A stretch of 64,000 bases of DNA from Aequorivita capsosiphonis DSM 23843 (GTDB lineage: Bacteria > Bacteroidota > Bacteroidia > Flavobacteriales > Flavobacteriaceae), in NCBI RefSeq assembly GCF_000429125.1, contig NZ_AUBG01000002.1, forward strand, positions 186,001-250,000. The letters run 5' to 3'. The notes beneath the pieces were generated by a model. The model saw only the letters and a program-made list of their open reading frames with translations, searched no databases and was not told the origin of the DNA. Shown here piece after piece: positions 11,195 to 15,271 of the stretch. Each line of letters begins with the position of its first letter. Within the stretch, counting starts at the first letter, position 1. A program made the position numbers and the translations under genes.

Positions 11195-11534
11195 TTTTCT
11201 GCTGAGGAATTTGGAGTTTATTCAAAATTAATGTTGCATTAGTATTTTTATATGTTTTTCTTAATTAATTTTTAACCGACAACCGATTGCTAAGATAAGC
11301 GTTTCCCTAGGCTAAATCATGGTTGATTTCTAAACGCTCTACAAATTTTTAATTTCGCTTTTCAATCTTAAAATAGCAAACACAACAATCTGATCAATAA
11401 ACAACTAATCGATGATTTTCTTGAGGATTATATAGCTATCTTAGGTTATAATTTGTAAATTAGTGCAGATATTATTCTATCCTCACATCACTACTGTCCC
11501 CTATTTTGATTTAATTATTTAATAATCATACGCT
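11195..11534. other. divergent intergenic region upstream of TIR-STAND module
   Basis: 340 bp between the minus-strand exporter and the plus-strand TIR gene. It must hold promoters for both. The closest promoter-like strings on the plus strand (TATAATTTG near 11447, CTATTTTG near 11500) deviate from TAnnTTTG in spacing, so the module's promoter is not assigned. No gene or repeat seen. Confidence 0.6.
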
Positions 11535-13046
11535 ATGGCATTAATTCCAGGATTTGAATACGACATTTTTATTAGCTATGTGCACGCTGATAATGAATCT
11601 GAAACTTTTGAGGAGGACGGATGGATCGATCAATTTTATAAGTATCTGGATACAAAGCTCAACAAGCACTCCAGAAATATTAAGATTTGGTGGGATTCAA
11701 AAAATCTTGACCGTAGTGAAGTTTTTGACAATTCCATAGCAGAAGCAATAGACAAATCAGCCATTATGATCTGCCTGTATTCGAGGCTTTATCCACAATC
11801 TGAATATTGTAAAAAAGAATTGGAACATTTCTACGAAAAAGTCGCCAAGGAAAAAATTGGAATGAATGTAGGGAATCGCTCCCGTATTATCCCTGTATTT
11901 ATGTCCAATATTCCACATACCGAATGGCTGGAAAAACTGAGTGGCACCAGTGGTTTTCCCTTCCATGACGATAATGAATACGGTGACCCCTTAAAAAACA
12001 CGAGTCCACAATTTGGAGAGCAAATGATTCAATTGCGAAATGCTTTGGTGCGAATTTTTGATGATTTCTCCAAAGAACTCCCAGAAATACAAGAACCACT
12101 AATTGTAGAGGAAGAAAAGGAAAAAGGCTTCACCATTTTTATGTCTGAAGTAAATGATAGCCTCTATGACAGACGGGATGGAGTGATTGCCGAATTAAAA
12201 GAAAAAGGATATCATATTATAACTGGAGATGCCTCTGTAGGCAATTTTGAAACTCATGATAGCATAACAAAAGATGCCATTGCTAAATCACAGTTCGCGG
12301 TTAATATTTTAGGAAACTTTCCGGGTAGAAAGATTCCCGGAGAAACCCAATCGCGCTATATTCAAAGACAAACCGAATTGGTTTTAGAATCCAAAATCCC
12401 ACAATTAATTTGGGTTTCAAGAGATGCCGATCTAAATAAAACAGACAGCAAGGAATATCGGCAGTTTGTAAATGGCTTGGAAGATGCAACCGTTTCTTCA
12501 AAAAAATATGAATTTGTACGAGGCAATGAAGGCGAATTGGCCATGTTGATCGATGATTATGCCAAACAGTTACAAGAGGTTCAATTACAAAAGCTTTCAG
12601 AGAAGAAAAGTCCAGATGGAGCACCCATCAAAGTTTTATTAGATACACACACTGACGACTTTAAGCAAGCCTTCGATCTGAAAAAAATATTAAATGATTA
12701 TAATGTCGATTTAATATTCAACCCCGAAGATGGCGACCCACAGGAAAATATCAAATCCTTATATGCAAACATTGGGGAAGCCAAAAAGTTTATCTTTTTG
12801 TATGGAAATGAAACCCATAAGGACTGGGTGGATATTCGCGTTAAGAATACGCTTAAAAAGCTGATGGATTACGACCGTTATGGCCAAGACATCTTTATAT
12901 ATGTTACTCCTCCAGAAAAGGATATGAACTCCATAAAAGTAGCTCAGAATCCAATGGTTAAATTGGTGGATCACAGTCATAATAATCCTCTTGATGATGA
13001 GGTTTTACAAGCTTTTCTCAAGGATCTTAATGCATTAGGGCTATGA
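11535..13046 (+). CDS. TIR-domain protein with two further TIR/DUF4062-like lobes
   Basis: 503 aa, no signal peptide. Residues 7-155 are a TIR domain: box 1 YDIFISY (9-15), IWWDSKNLDRSEVFDNSI in the BB-loop region, and Y91-C-K-K-E95-L with E95 at the position of the catalytic NADase glutamate of bacterial TIRs. Residues about 198-350 look like a second flavodoxin-like lobe (TIFMSEVNDSLYDRRD, then ...NILGNFPGRKIPGE and LIWVSRD), reminiscent of DUF4062/TIR-like domains. Residues about 365-480 form a third such lobe (IKVLLDTHTDDFKQAF, FIFLYGNETHKDWV). The stop overlaps the start of the STAND gene (ATGA), so the products are made together. A signalling or immune role is inferred. Confidence 0.88.
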   Translation: MALIPGFEYDIFISYVHADNESETFEEDGWIDQFYKYLDTKLNKHSRNIKIWWDSKNLDRSEVFDNSIAEAIDKSAIMICLYSRLYPQSEYCKKELEHFYEKVAKEKIGMNVGNRSRIIPVFMSNIPHTEWLEKLSGTSGFPFHDDNEYGDPLKNTSPQFGEQMIQLRNALVRIFDDFSKELPEIQEPLIVEEEKEKGFTIFMSEVNDSLYDRRDGVIAELKEKGYHIITGDASVGNFETHDSITKDAIAKSQFAVNILGNFPGRKIPGETQSRYIQRQTELVLESKIPQLIWVSRDADLNKTDSKEYRQFVNGLEDATVSSKKYEFVRGNEGELAMLIDDYAKQLQEVQLQKLSEKKSPDGAPIKVLLDTHTDDFKQAFDLKKILNDYNVDLIFNPEDGDPQENIKSLYANIGEAKKFIFLYGNETHKDWVDIRVKNTLKKLMDYDRYGQDIFIYVTPPEKDMNSIKVAQNPMVKLVDHSHNNPLDDEVLQAFLKDLNALGL

Positions 13047-15271
13047 GCGATAACTTCTTTAATCCATATGTAGGACTTCGGCCATTTAGAGATGATGAAA
13101 ATTTATTGTTTTTTGGCCGTGATGAGCAGACTCTTGAATTATTACAACGTCTTCACACCAACCGTTTTGTGGCGGTAGTAGGAAGTTCAGGTAGTGGAAA
13201 GTCTTCCCTGATAAGAGCGGGGTTAATTCCTGCCTTAAAAGGAGGTTACTTGGTTGAAAACAGTAGTCAATGGCTGATTGCTATTATGAAGCCAGGACAA
13301 AACCCAATGTTCAATCTAGCTGAAACTATTTTACTTCAAATTAATCCGAATGTAGAAGATCCGGAAATTCAGGCATTTGTTATACGCATTAAAAAACAAG
13401 GGGTTTCTGCCATTTTGGATGTTATTGAGCCACTTCGGAAAAATAAAAACGCTAATTTCTTTTTGCTCGTTGATCAATTTGAGGAGCTCTTTCGCTTCTC
13501 TATAAAACAAAGCGACGTTTCCAATAGAACGGAAGCAATTGACTTTGTTAATACAATTTTAAAGCTTTCAGAACAAAAACGAATTCCATTTTACGTAGTT
13601 TTTACCATGCGTTCTGATTTCATTGGAGATTGCGCACAGTTTTTTGGCCTACCTGAGGCTTTAAACAAAAGCCAATATCTGGTTCCTAGACTAAACAGAT
13701 TGGAACTAAAAAAGGTAATTGAAGGACCCGCAAAACTATACGGTGGCAATTTTAATCCAGCCTTAACTTCTAGGCTAATTAACGATTTAGGAGTTGTGAA
13801 GGATGAACTACCCTTAGTGCAACACGCTTTAATGCGCATCTGGGAATATGAAAACAACGTAGATAAAAGTGGGGAACTCGACCTTGAAGATTACAAACAT
13901 ATTGGCGGAATAGAAAATGCACTGTCCATGCACGCCGATGAAGCTTTGAAGGAATTAAAACCAGATGAAGTGCCATTGGCAAAAGCACTTTTTCAAGCCT
14001 TGACAACTATTGATGAAAATGGTAGAAAAATACGTAGACCCGCTAGATTAAAGGATTTAATAGAGTTAACCGGTGCCAGCGAGGAAAAACTTTTAGGCGT
14101 AATAAATACTTTTGTAAAGAATAACCGTTCGTTTTTAGTTATTGATAAAATAGGTGATTCTGGAGATAAACTTATTGATATATCGCACGAAAGCTTGATT
14201 AGGCATTGGAAATCCCTAAACGCATGGGTAGATGAGGAAAGTGATGCCGCTATCCAATATATTCGTCTCTGTGATGCGTATGTAGCGAATAAGGAAGATC
14301 GAAAAGATTTACTCTCCGGAAGGGAATTTGAAATTGCCCAAGAATGGTATGAAAAGTTTAAGCCTAACAAACTCTGGGCCTCCCGTTATAACGATAATTT
14401 TGATGAAGGGATGAAATACCTTTCAAACAGTGCCAAGGTTTACAATATAAAAAAGCGAAATGAACGAAGAATTAAACGTATTAAGAAAGGGAGCGTATAT
14501 ACTTTGATTGCTTTCGCATTTATTGCCCTTTTCAGTTATTTTCTACTCCAGCCTACTATGGAGCAAATAGATTGGAGCACTGCGAAATCTCAAAACAACG
14601 TGGACGGGTTTACAGAATATTTAGAATCCCATCCCAAAGGGGAATATTCAGAAATTGCGCAAAACTTTCTTGACTCTATAAACATGCAGCAAGCTTGGTT
14701 GGTTGCTGAAAAAGATAATACCGTCAAGGCGTATCAGAAATATTTAAACTTGGCAGCTATAGAAAAAGATTCCTTAAATAATATACTTGAATACTCCAAG
14801 TTTGCAAAGGATACACTTACCGCCACCAAAAGAATTCAATCGCTGAAAAGCGAAATAGATAACTTCAACTTAGATCTTGAAGCATGGCAAGCAGCACTAG
14901 GGAAAAACACATTAGCTTCTTATTTGGGATATATAAAAAATGATTCTATATCCGGAAATCATAATGATGAAGCAAATAAAAAAATTCAGGAAATCGGCAA
15001 AAACGGGTTTTTGTATAGTGGAAAAACCGTCGGTAATAGAATTCCGAATTCGGTGTTTGATGTAATTTACAGAAAAGAAGGCGAGTTTAAAGCAGATGAT
15101 ATCCCCCAAACAAATGATATTGTTCGGGCGAACGATAATCGCTATATCTATAAAGATTTGTCTGTAAACTATAAAACTGGAAATAGTGTAAAAATCAACA
15201 AGATTTACCTTATCAAAAGTGTCAGTTTACAAGCCAATGCGGTGTTTGTTGAAATTGTTTATGAACCCTAA
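13043..15271 (+). CDS. membrane-anchored STAND NTPase (nSTAND1-like)
   Basis: 742 aa signal-transduction ATPase. It begins with the nSTAND1 signature NPYVGLRPFRDDE and FFGRD, then Walker A GSSGSGKSS (47-55), Walker B FFLLVDQFEE (139-148), a sensor-1-like MRSDF (189-193), and a winged-helix-like region with LPLVQHALMRIWE (256-268). One membrane span at about 483-503 follows a very basic segment, so the ATPase should be cytoplasmic and residues 505-742 periplasmic. Residues about 510-650 hold three repeats of the W-x2-A...N-T/V...Y-x2-Y type at 511, 552 and 615. The C-terminal 90 residues are unclassified. Start overlaps the TIR stop by 4 nt. Confidence 0.9.
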   Translation: MSDNFFNPYVGLRPFRDDENLLFFGRDEQTLELLQRLHTNRFVAVVGSSGSGKSSLIRAGLIPALKGGYLVENSSQWLIAIMKPGQNPMFNLAETILLQINPNVEDPEIQAFVIRIKKQGVSAILDVIEPLRKNKNANFFLLVDQFEELFRFSIKQSDVSNRTEAIDFVNTILKLSEQKRIPFYVVFTMRSDFIGDCAQFFGLPEALNKSQYLVPRLNRLELKKVIEGPAKLYGGNFNPALTSRLINDLGVVKDELPLVQHALMRIWEYENNVDKSGELDLEDYKHIGGIENALSMHADEALKELKPDEVPLAKALFQALTTIDENGRKIRRPARLKDLIELTGASEEKLLGVINTFVKNNRSFLVIDKIGDSGDKLIDISHESLIRHWKSLNAWVDEESDAAIQYIRLCDAYVANKEDRKDLLSGREFEIAQEWYEKFKPNKLWASRYNDNFDEGMKYLSNSAKVYNIKKRNERRIKRIKKGSVYTLIAFAFIALFSYFLLQPTMEQIDWSTAKSQNNVDGFTEYLESHPKGEYSEIAQNFLDSINMQQAWLVAEKDNTVKAYQKYLNLAAIEKDSLNNILEYSKFAKDTLTATKRIQSLKSEIDNFNLDLEAWQAALGKNTLASYLGYIKNDSISGNHNDEANKKIQEIGKNGFLYSGKTVGNRIPNSVFDVIYRKEGEFKADDIPQTNDIVRANDNRYIYKDLSVNYKTGNSVKINKIYLIKSVSLQANAVFVEIVYEP

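What the first reader, a model, noticed from the sequence alone, without database searches (positions are those of the whole stretch)
11535..15271. Two-gene TIR plus membrane STAND module
Seen: a TIR protein with the putative NADase glutamate E95, overlapping by 4 nt (ATGA) with a nSTAND1-like ATPase that carries one membrane span. Known: TIR effectors with STAND or NTPase partners act in bacterial immunity. Inference: the STAND protein senses a trigger and activates TIR-based NAD+ depletion or signalling. Neither protein matches a standard Thoeris, CBASS or Avs layout, because the TIR and the ATPase are separate and the ATPase is membrane-anchored with a periplasmic C-terminus.
Basis: partly seen in the sequence, partly recalled or inferred. 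Interest (0 to 1): 0.78.

Follow-up and report, generated by a model that had tools for sequence, protein, structure and literature searches.

The report
Membrane-anchored bacterial TIR–STAND receptor pair
Two overlapping genes encode a predicted NAD-cutting alarm protein and a membrane-anchored switch protein whose sensing end probably faces outside the cytoplasm; the pair is kept together in many bacteria with swapped sensors and looks like an uncharacterised immune receptor.

Summary
Window 11535-13046 encodes a 503-aa TIR protein; 13043-15271, overlapping by ATGA, encodes a 742-aa nSTAND1 NTPase with one predicted membrane span. The pair is a real unit: in the genus the same 8 of 28 species carry both and none carries one; in 19 of 20 non-carriers the flanking genes are adjacent; of 79 loci found with the TIR protein alone, 45 have an nSTAND1 frame abutting or fused.

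Best reading: a split, membrane-anchored NLR-like receptor in which an envelope-side trigger makes the STAND cluster TIR subunits that cleave NAD+. Activity, trigger and defence role are untested. New variant of a known kind.

The parts
11195..11534 (+). Intergenic stretch upstream of the pair, between the divergent EamA-like gene and the TIR start; presumed promoter region (not tested)
   Evidence: ORF layout; inference
11535..13046 (+). TIR protein gene, 503 aa, three predicted alpha/beta domains
11559..12077 (+). TIR domain, residues 9-181
   Evidence: Pfam TIR_2 5e-14; model matches SPARTA TIR-APAZ Z 16.1 and RUN1 TIR Z 15.5
11817..11819 (+). Codon of E95, putative NADase glutamate
   Evidence: E in 41 of 43 aligned relatives
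12126..12605 (+). DUF4062-like middle domain, residues 198-357
   Evidence: Pfam DUF4062 20.5 bits here, below cut-off 24.7; 24 of 43 relatives at E<=0.01; fold match to CMP N-glycosidases Z 12
12624..13043 (+). Third, flavodoxin/B12-binding-like domain, residues 364-503
   Evidence: AlphaFold model; Z 11.8 match
13043..13046 (+). ATGA overlap of the two genes
   Evidence: 27 of 45 paired loci have the same 4-nt overlap
13043..15271 (+). nSTAND1 NTPase gene, 742 aa
13064..14281 (+). nSTAND1 NTPase domain, residues 8-413
   Evidence: Pfam 5.9e-97; fold matches Orc/Cdc6 and Apaf-1
13199..13201 (+). Codon of K53, Walker A lysine
   Evidence: 26 of 26 aligned relatives
14492..14548 (+). Predicted membrane span, residues 484-502
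   Evidence: hydropathy 2.11; K/R 9 before, 1 after
14549..15268 (+). Post-span module, residues 503-742: helical part and small beta domain (about 652-742)
   Evidence: AlphaFold model; no Pfam match; profile A4 finds it in TIR-span and other span proteins

Best explanation
The pair is a split, membrane-anchored NLR-like receptor. The STAND protein sits in the inner membrane by one span, NTPase in the cytoplasm, variable C-terminal module in the periplasm. A trigger at the envelope (phage adsorption or injection, a toxin, envelope damage) acts on the outer module; the NTPase exchanges nucleotide, oligomerises and gathers several TIR proteins, which I infer dock through their DUF4062-like and third domains. 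Clustered TIR domains cleave NAD+ using E95, and NAD+ loss or an ADP-ribose signal stops the cell. Shown by sequence: the two-gene unit, presence or absence as a unit in one genus, conserved catalytic and nucleotide-binding residues, a conserved hydrophobic span, exchange of what follows it. Inferred: topology, docking, oligomerisation, NADase activity, trigger, defence role.
For: Same 8 of 28 genus genomes carry both, none one; 19 of 20 non-carriers have the flanking genes adjacent. 45 of 79 loci found with the TIR protein alone have nSTAND1 abutting or fused, 27 with the 4-nt overlap, 1 fused; in an evenly drawn phylum sample 15 of 16 matches that reach the third domain are followed by nSTAND1 within about 210 nt. 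E95 in 41 of 43, K53 and D144 in 26 of 26. Span in 42 of 46, K/R bias in 39 of 42. TIR domain matches SPARTA and RUN1 TIR NADases; NTPase matches Apaf-1, NLRC4, NLRP3. Outer parts exchanged. The window's outer module also sits after a span on TIR proteins L178, L182, L186, L191, L193; L190, a further TIR-span protein hit by that profile, ends in TonB_C, a periplasmic domain by established knowledge. 8 of 45 paired loci have SLATT/caspase, patatin or trypsin-FHA neighbours within 4.5 kb.
Against: No experiment. E95 is lost in L054 and L093. The window's own neighbours are not defence genes (by eye), and 37 of 45 paired loci showed no such neighbour among those I recognised (most neighbours were never put through a family search). 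G+C of the pair equals that of the window, so recent transfer is not shown. Some loci adjoin outer-membrane or TonB receptor genes, which fits envelope signalling as well as defence. Topology rests on hydropathy. WD40 propellers, the commonest outer part, are usually cytoplasmic (recalled).
Confidence: 0.5

Rival explanations
1. The pair is an envelope-stress or transport-linked signalling system, not immunity; TIR activity adjusts NAD+ or makes a signal in normal physiology.
For: A conserved run of a HEAT-repeat protein, an outer-membrane barrel (Pfam run on L053 only) and, in three of the four, a further beta-propeller lipoprotein-like gene surrounds L053, L054, L076 and L093; a TonB receptor follows the STAND in L046. 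E95 is lost in L054 and L093 of that group. Housekeeping neighbours in the window (by eye).
Against: Patchy presence: 8 of 28 in the genus, 5 of 249 in the family with one protein as query, 13 of 395 in the phylum. The outer module and middle domain change faster than TIR and NTPase. Conflict-type neighbours at 8 of 45 loci.
Confidence: 0.18
2. The STAND is an intracellular sensor like Avs; the hydrophobic stretch is a buried helix or a simple tether and the C-terminal module binds phage proteins in the cytoplasm.
For: WD40 and TPR parts are common in cytoplasmic sensors (recalled). In 4 of 46 partners no span was found where expected (L028 split frame, L036 contig end, L041, L051).
Against: Span in 42 of 46, K/R bias in 39 of 42; related module on TIR-span proteins, and one profile-hit TIR-span protein ending in TonB_C.
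Confidence: 0.13
3. The TIR protein is a signal maker or a scaffold, and a separate effector elsewhere (SLATT pore, caspase) kills the cell.
For: SLATT_1/DUF4231 and caspase-hydrolase genes beside L023, L025 and L028 (Pfam run on L025 only); a caspase-hydrolase gene beside a TIR-span protein in the window's own genome. E95 lost in 2 of 43. Thoeris-type TIRs make signals (PMC11312562, abstract start seen in listing).
Against: In the genus the unit gained or lost is the two genes alone; no effector is linked in the window.
Confidence: 0.14

Closest known systems
bDLD3-linked STAND-FGS plus TIR gene pairs (Kaur et al. 2021, PMC8195603; passages read)
   Same: TIR and STAND on separate, neighbouring genes; the paper also names the nSTAND1 clade; one relative here (L063) carries an FGE-sulfatase/FGS domain after the STAND.
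   Different: No death-like domain was found: the TIR protein's extra domains are predicted alpha/beta domains; here the STAND has a span and its outer part varies. No bDLD profile was available to me.
Swarozyc / DUF4062 TIR-like NADases and eukaryotic TEP1, NWD1 (PMC13174449, preprint; abstract, Results part 1, Discussion read)
   Same: DUF4062 domain; in the eukaryotic proteins DUF4062 stands before a STAND NTPase and WD40, as in the chain formed by the two proteins here and in the fused relative L034 (nSTAND1, WD40).
   Different: Here DUF4062-like is a middle domain behind a canonical TIR; the glutamate at the matching place is not conserved; the STAND is nSTAND1 with a span; two genes.
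SPARTA TIR-APAZ and plant RUN1 TIR
   Same: TIR fold: Z 16.1 (rmsd 2.2, 133 residues) and Z 15.5 (rmsd 2.5, 145 residues); E95 lies opposite the glutamate of the RUN1 CLDEL motif.
   Different: No Argonaute or APAZ in the Pfam scan; activator here is a membrane STAND.
Avs and other antiviral STANDs
   Same: STAND NTPase switch with a variable C-terminal sensor.
   Different: Effector on another gene in 44 of 45 pairs; predicted span. Avs features are recalled.
FxsC TIR-like proteins (NF040588)
   Same: Match over residues 12-135, E 6.4e-13.
   Different: 49 bits against a cut-off of 130.

Membership tests
TIR domain NADases | TIR fold | tested here: met
   Pfam TIR_2 53.3 bits over cut-off 28; Z 16.1
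TIR domain NADases | Catalytic glutamate | tested here: met
   E95; E in 41 of 43
TIR domain NADases | NAD+ cleavage | not testable with these tools
   needs an assay
STAND, nSTAND1 clade | nSTAND1 profile and intact Walker motifs | tested here: met
   326.1 bits over cut-off 27.1; K53, D144 26 of 26
STAND, nSTAND1 clade | Nucleotide-driven oligomerisation | not testable with these tools
   needs biochemistry
Thoeris | ThsB-type TIR | tested here: inconclusive
   ThsB_TIR 21.6 bits, just over cut-off 21.2; PADLOC ThsB E 0.0014; TIR_2 is far stronger
Thoeris | ThsA partner beside it | tested here: not met
   adjacent genes are the STAND, an EamA-like and a DEAD-like gene (names by eye)
Avs | Effector domain fused to the STAND | tested here: not met
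   no effector domain in the STAND; separate genes in 44 of 45 pairs
Avs | Recognition of phage terminase or portal | not testable with these tools
   needs infection tests
CBASS with TIR effectors | SAVED or STING domain in the TIR protein | tested here: not met
   no such Pfam hit; PADLOC SAVED_TIR E 0.025 over residues 10-115 only
Swarozyc / DUF4062 | DUF4062 domain | tested here: inconclusive
   window protein 20.5 bits, below cut-off 24.7; 24 of 43 relatives at E<=0.01; 4 of 10 scanned over cut-off (L034's list was cut at 25 of 67)
Swarozyc / DUF4062 | Conserved catalytic glutamate of DUF4062 | tested here: not met
   E281, placed by topology, is E in 21 of 43
bDLD3 STAND-FGS plus TIR pair | bDLD3 domain on both proteins | not tested
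   no bDLD3 profile on hand; no death-fold seen in the models

The most novel reading that the evidence does not exclude
A widespread receptor design that joins Toll-like topology with an NLR switch: a constant cytoplasmic core (TIR-DUF4062 protein plus nSTAND1), a constant membrane span and a freely exchanged extracytoplasmic sensor, detecting attack at the envelope before or during genome entry. The same outer module is also wired directly to TIR in single-chain TIR-span proteins, so both wirings coexist in one lineage.
Probability: 0.33. Interest if true: 0.82.

Novelty: new variant of a known kind. Interest (0 to 1): 0.6.

Why it matters
The bacterial NLR-like immune proteins I know of sense phage parts inside the cell (recalled). 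A STAND switch with its sensor across the membrane and its TIR effector in trans would place bacterial surveillance at the envelope. It would also give a natural two-chain system for asking how a STAND ring activates TIR and DUF4062 domains, a question raised for TEP1 and NWD1 in PMC13174449 (Discussion read). The exchanged outer modules are a ready panel for mapping triggers.

Tried and rejected
Rejected: chance adjacency. Rejected: Thoeris, Avs and CBASS membership (see membership test). Rejected: the G255 STAND as a pseudogene; its in-frame TAA is the second-last codon of the aligned stretch. Rejected: a second well-kept catalytic centre at E281. Rejected on recheck: AAA plus VWA_CoxE genes beside L012/L029 as a MoxR-vWA conflict system; by eye they belong to a molybdenum-hydroxylase (Cox-type) cluster in the same locus, so they are not counted as conflict neighbours. 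Not shown: positive selection; dS was saturated in many comparisons and where a ratio could be computed it was 0.018-0.208.

Led nowhere: PDB sequence searches gave only marginal hits. Pfam found nothing for the window's post-span module. In the VIA lists one domain filled most rows (TIR model 2-178, STAND model 1-397), so the post-span module was barely tested against known folds. The plasmid collection gave one partial match and the phage collection none. Literature: (openly licensed PMC papers only; one search listed 20 of 41 papers) listed no paper that I recognised as describing this pair; I read passages of three of the listed papers and only listings of the others. This is weak evidence that none exists. 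led to the DUF4062 preprint.

Rows left out before counts: of the 79 loci (itself the best 80 of 288), 26 match over the TIR domain only or mainly and were not counted as the same family. Of the other 53, 45 are paired, 3 end at the contig edge (L017, L039, L075) and 5 have no abutting partner: L040 (nSTAND1 457 nt away), L044 (broken STAND frames adjacent), L095 (STAND about 800 nt away), L083 and L085 (other architecture). Alignment A2 holds 42 relatives plus the window protein and A3 25 plus the window protein, picked by me from these rows. Twenty C-termini of the 45 paired STANDs went to Pfam and L034 whole. In one search the span was sought between residues 430 and 640 at a mean hydropathy of 1.5 or more, with other bounds for L020 and L034. 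In one search, of 20 matches, four that do not reach the third domain (L163-L166) were left out; of the other 16, L159, with a stop inside, has no STAND frame in its flank.

Changed on recheck: the MoxR-vWA point was withdrawn, G+C is compared with the window only, and the TIR-span proteins were put through Pfam and a span scan. I lowered confidence from 0.55 to 0.5 for the withdrawn point.
Full report
OBSERVATION. E95 and K53 are numbered correctly. Pfam gives TIR_2 5e-14 and nSTAND1 5.9e-97. The nearest relatives are four Aequorivita records at 76-82% identity for the TIR protein, so the window probably comes from that genus (inference).

THE PAIR IS A UNIT. In the genus 8 of 28 species have the STAND protein and 8 of 28 the TIR protein; they are the same 8 and the genes lie together, except that in G266 contig ends split the TIR gene. 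The DEAD-box-like gene was found in all 28. In 19 of the 20 non-carriers the EamA-like gene lies beside it within about 300 bp; in the last, L145, the gap is about 1.3 kb. In G000, G267, G270, G250 and G255 the pair sits between the two; in G266 and G269 only one side can be read (contig end; DEAD gene elsewhere on the chromosome); in G249 a diverged pair (41% and 60% identity) sits one junction over. So what is present or absent is the two genes and little else. The labels EamA, DEAD and others are by eye from translations.

BREADTH. A scan with the TIR alignment alone kept 79 loci of 288 relatives. The partner was not in the query, so co-occurrence is informative. Fifty-three loci extend beyond the TIR domain; 45 have an nSTAND1 frame adjacent or fused, 27 with a 4-nt overlap and one (L034) fused. 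By record title they come from Bacteroidota, Acidobacteriota, Gamma- and Alphaproteobacteria, Cyanobacteria, KSB1, Poribacteria and Aminicenantes. In an evenly drawn sample of 395 genomes of the phylum, 13 (the window's own included) had a match; of 16 matches that reach the third domain, 15 are followed by an nSTAND1 frame within about 210 nt. In L157 and L158 the N-terminal TIR is of another kind while the rest is kept (L157: TIR_2 2.4e-22, DUF4062 4.5e-08). This hints that the two C-terminal domains are the STAND-facing part. TIR and STAND distances correlate, r 0.90, reached by 0 of 2000 permutations for 26 pairs; shared species history contributes.

THE TIR PROTEIN. AlphaFold (43 sequences, mean pLDDT 84.0, pTM 0.43) shows three alpha/beta domains with uncertain mutual placement. 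The first matches SPARTA TIR-APAZ (Z 16.1, rmsd 2.2, 133 residues) and RUN1 TIR (Z 15.5, rmsd 2.5, 145 residues); the second, CMP N-glycosidases (Z 12.1, rmsd 2.9, 118 residues; Z 12.0, rmsd 3.2, 133 residues); the third, a methylmalonyl-CoA mutase part (Z 11.8, rmsd 2.8, 128 residues). The second is DUF4062-like: 24 of 43 members at E<=0.01, 4 of 10 scanned over cut-off, the window protein below it. DUF4062 was reported in May 2026 as a TIR-like NADase family acting against phage and in TEP1 (PMC13174449, preprint; abstract, Results part 1 and Discussion read). E95 is kept in 41 of 43, lost in L054 and L093. The glutamate at the matching place of the second domain, E281, is E in 21, D in 8 and Q in 5 of 43, so only the first domain has a well-kept NADase centre.

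THE STAND PROTEIN. K53, D144, E147 and R190 are invariant in 26 of 26. The model (mean pLDDT 83.4, pTM 0.61) matches Orc/Cdc6, Apaf-1, NLRC4 and NLRP3. A hydrophobic span follows the NTPase in 42 of 46 proteins (window plus 45), with more K/R before than after in 39 of 42; ties or reversals are L024, L059 and L065. With an ATP-binding N-terminus and one span, the rest should lie outside the inner membrane (inference). What follows differs: of 20 C-termini scanned, 12 have WD40 or related propeller hits (L047 weak), one each pYEATS, TPR, FGE-sulfatase and TIR plus CHASE2, and four nothing beyond the NTPase.

THE OUTER MODULE OF THE WINDOW'S LINEAGE. Residues 503-742 form a helical part and a small beta domain without Pfam hit. 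A profile of seven relatives (A4) finds it in 7 of 28 genus genomes and 15 of 249 family genomes. Besides the paired STANDs the hits include six proteins with a Pfam TIR domain and a span (L178, L182, L186, L190, L191, L193), another nSTAND1 protein with a span (L185) and short proteins with an N-terminal hydrophobic stretch (L183, L187, L189, L192; weaker, 1.44, in L188). In L190 the profile match covers the repeats and the protein ends in TonB_C, a domain that works in the periplasm (established knowledge), which supports the outside placement for that protein. In the window's own genome a 342-aa TIR-span protein has a similar tail: the genome search did not list it at E 0.01, a direct pair comparison gave E 0.001, and the profile scored alone gave 18.2 bits against 41.9 for L178, so kinship there is likely but not firm. 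It lies beside a caspase-hydrolase-TPR-S gene, the kind of gene that neighbours the pair in L023, L025 and L028. Within the genus the outer module (47-77% identity, four comparisons) and the DUF4062-like domain (62-75%, five) differ more than TIR (86-92%) and NTPase (82-87%).

CONTEXT. The window's flanks look like housekeeping (by eye) and the pair's G+C is that of the window. Elsewhere, within 4.5 kb, 8 of 45 paired loci adjoin genes of kinds known from conflict systems: SLATT_1/DUF4231 and caspase-hydrolase at L023, L025, L028; patatin at L021, L022; trypsin-FHA at L050, L060, L064 (Pfam on one member of each group). SLATT, caspase and trypsin roles are described in PMC7159879 and PMC8195603 (passages read). 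AAA plus VWA_CoxE genes beside L029 are probably metabolic and are not counted. Against a pure defence reading, L053, L054, L076 and L093 share a run with a HEAT-repeat protein and an outer-membrane barrel, and L046 has a TonB receptor next door.

MECHANISM. I give 0.5 to the split, envelope-facing NADase receptor as a whole. The weakest steps are trigger and defence role; the strongest are the two-gene unit, the intact active sites and the conserved span.

NOVELTY. STAND proteins, TIR effectors and separate STAND and TIR genes (bDLD3-linked, PMC8195603) are known. A TIR-DUF4062 protein paired with an nSTAND1 protein carrying a constant span and exchanged outer modules was not met in the searches made. 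I file it as a new variant of a known kind.

Noticed in passing
L016:1500-2528 (-) and L016:2811-5042 (-), own genome G000:C2 about 41.5-45.0 kb: A 342-aa TIR-span protein with a tail resembling the window STAND's outer module, beside a caspase-hydrolase-TPR-S gene.
   Followed up: partly
L014:18073-19017 (-), own genome: Another TIR protein, 314 aa, with hydrophobic stretches before the TIR domain.
   Followed up: no
L058-L094, TIR-only loci: 18 of 26 TIR-only loci, mostly Bacteroidales or Cytophagales, encode TIR proteins with one hydrophobic span at about 223-244, some in tandem copies: possible single-chain Toll-like receptors.
   Followed up: no
L011:16342-16701 (+) and L013:624-1028 (-): Small proteins made almost wholly of an 8-residue repeat containing S-K-x-x-G-P-G, near the TPR membrane protein, caspase and TIR-STAND genes of two Robiginitalea genomes.
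   Followed up: no
L190:943-2886 (+): TIR-span-repeat protein that ends in a TonB_C domain.
   Followed up: no
L053, L054, L076, L093: Conserved run of HEAT-repeat protein, TIR, STAND and outer-membrane barrel, with a lipoprotein-like gene next in three of the four; two of the four TIRs lack the glutamate.
   Followed up: partly
L077, L084, L095: Two nSTAND1 genes in tandem near one such TIR gene.
   Followed up: no
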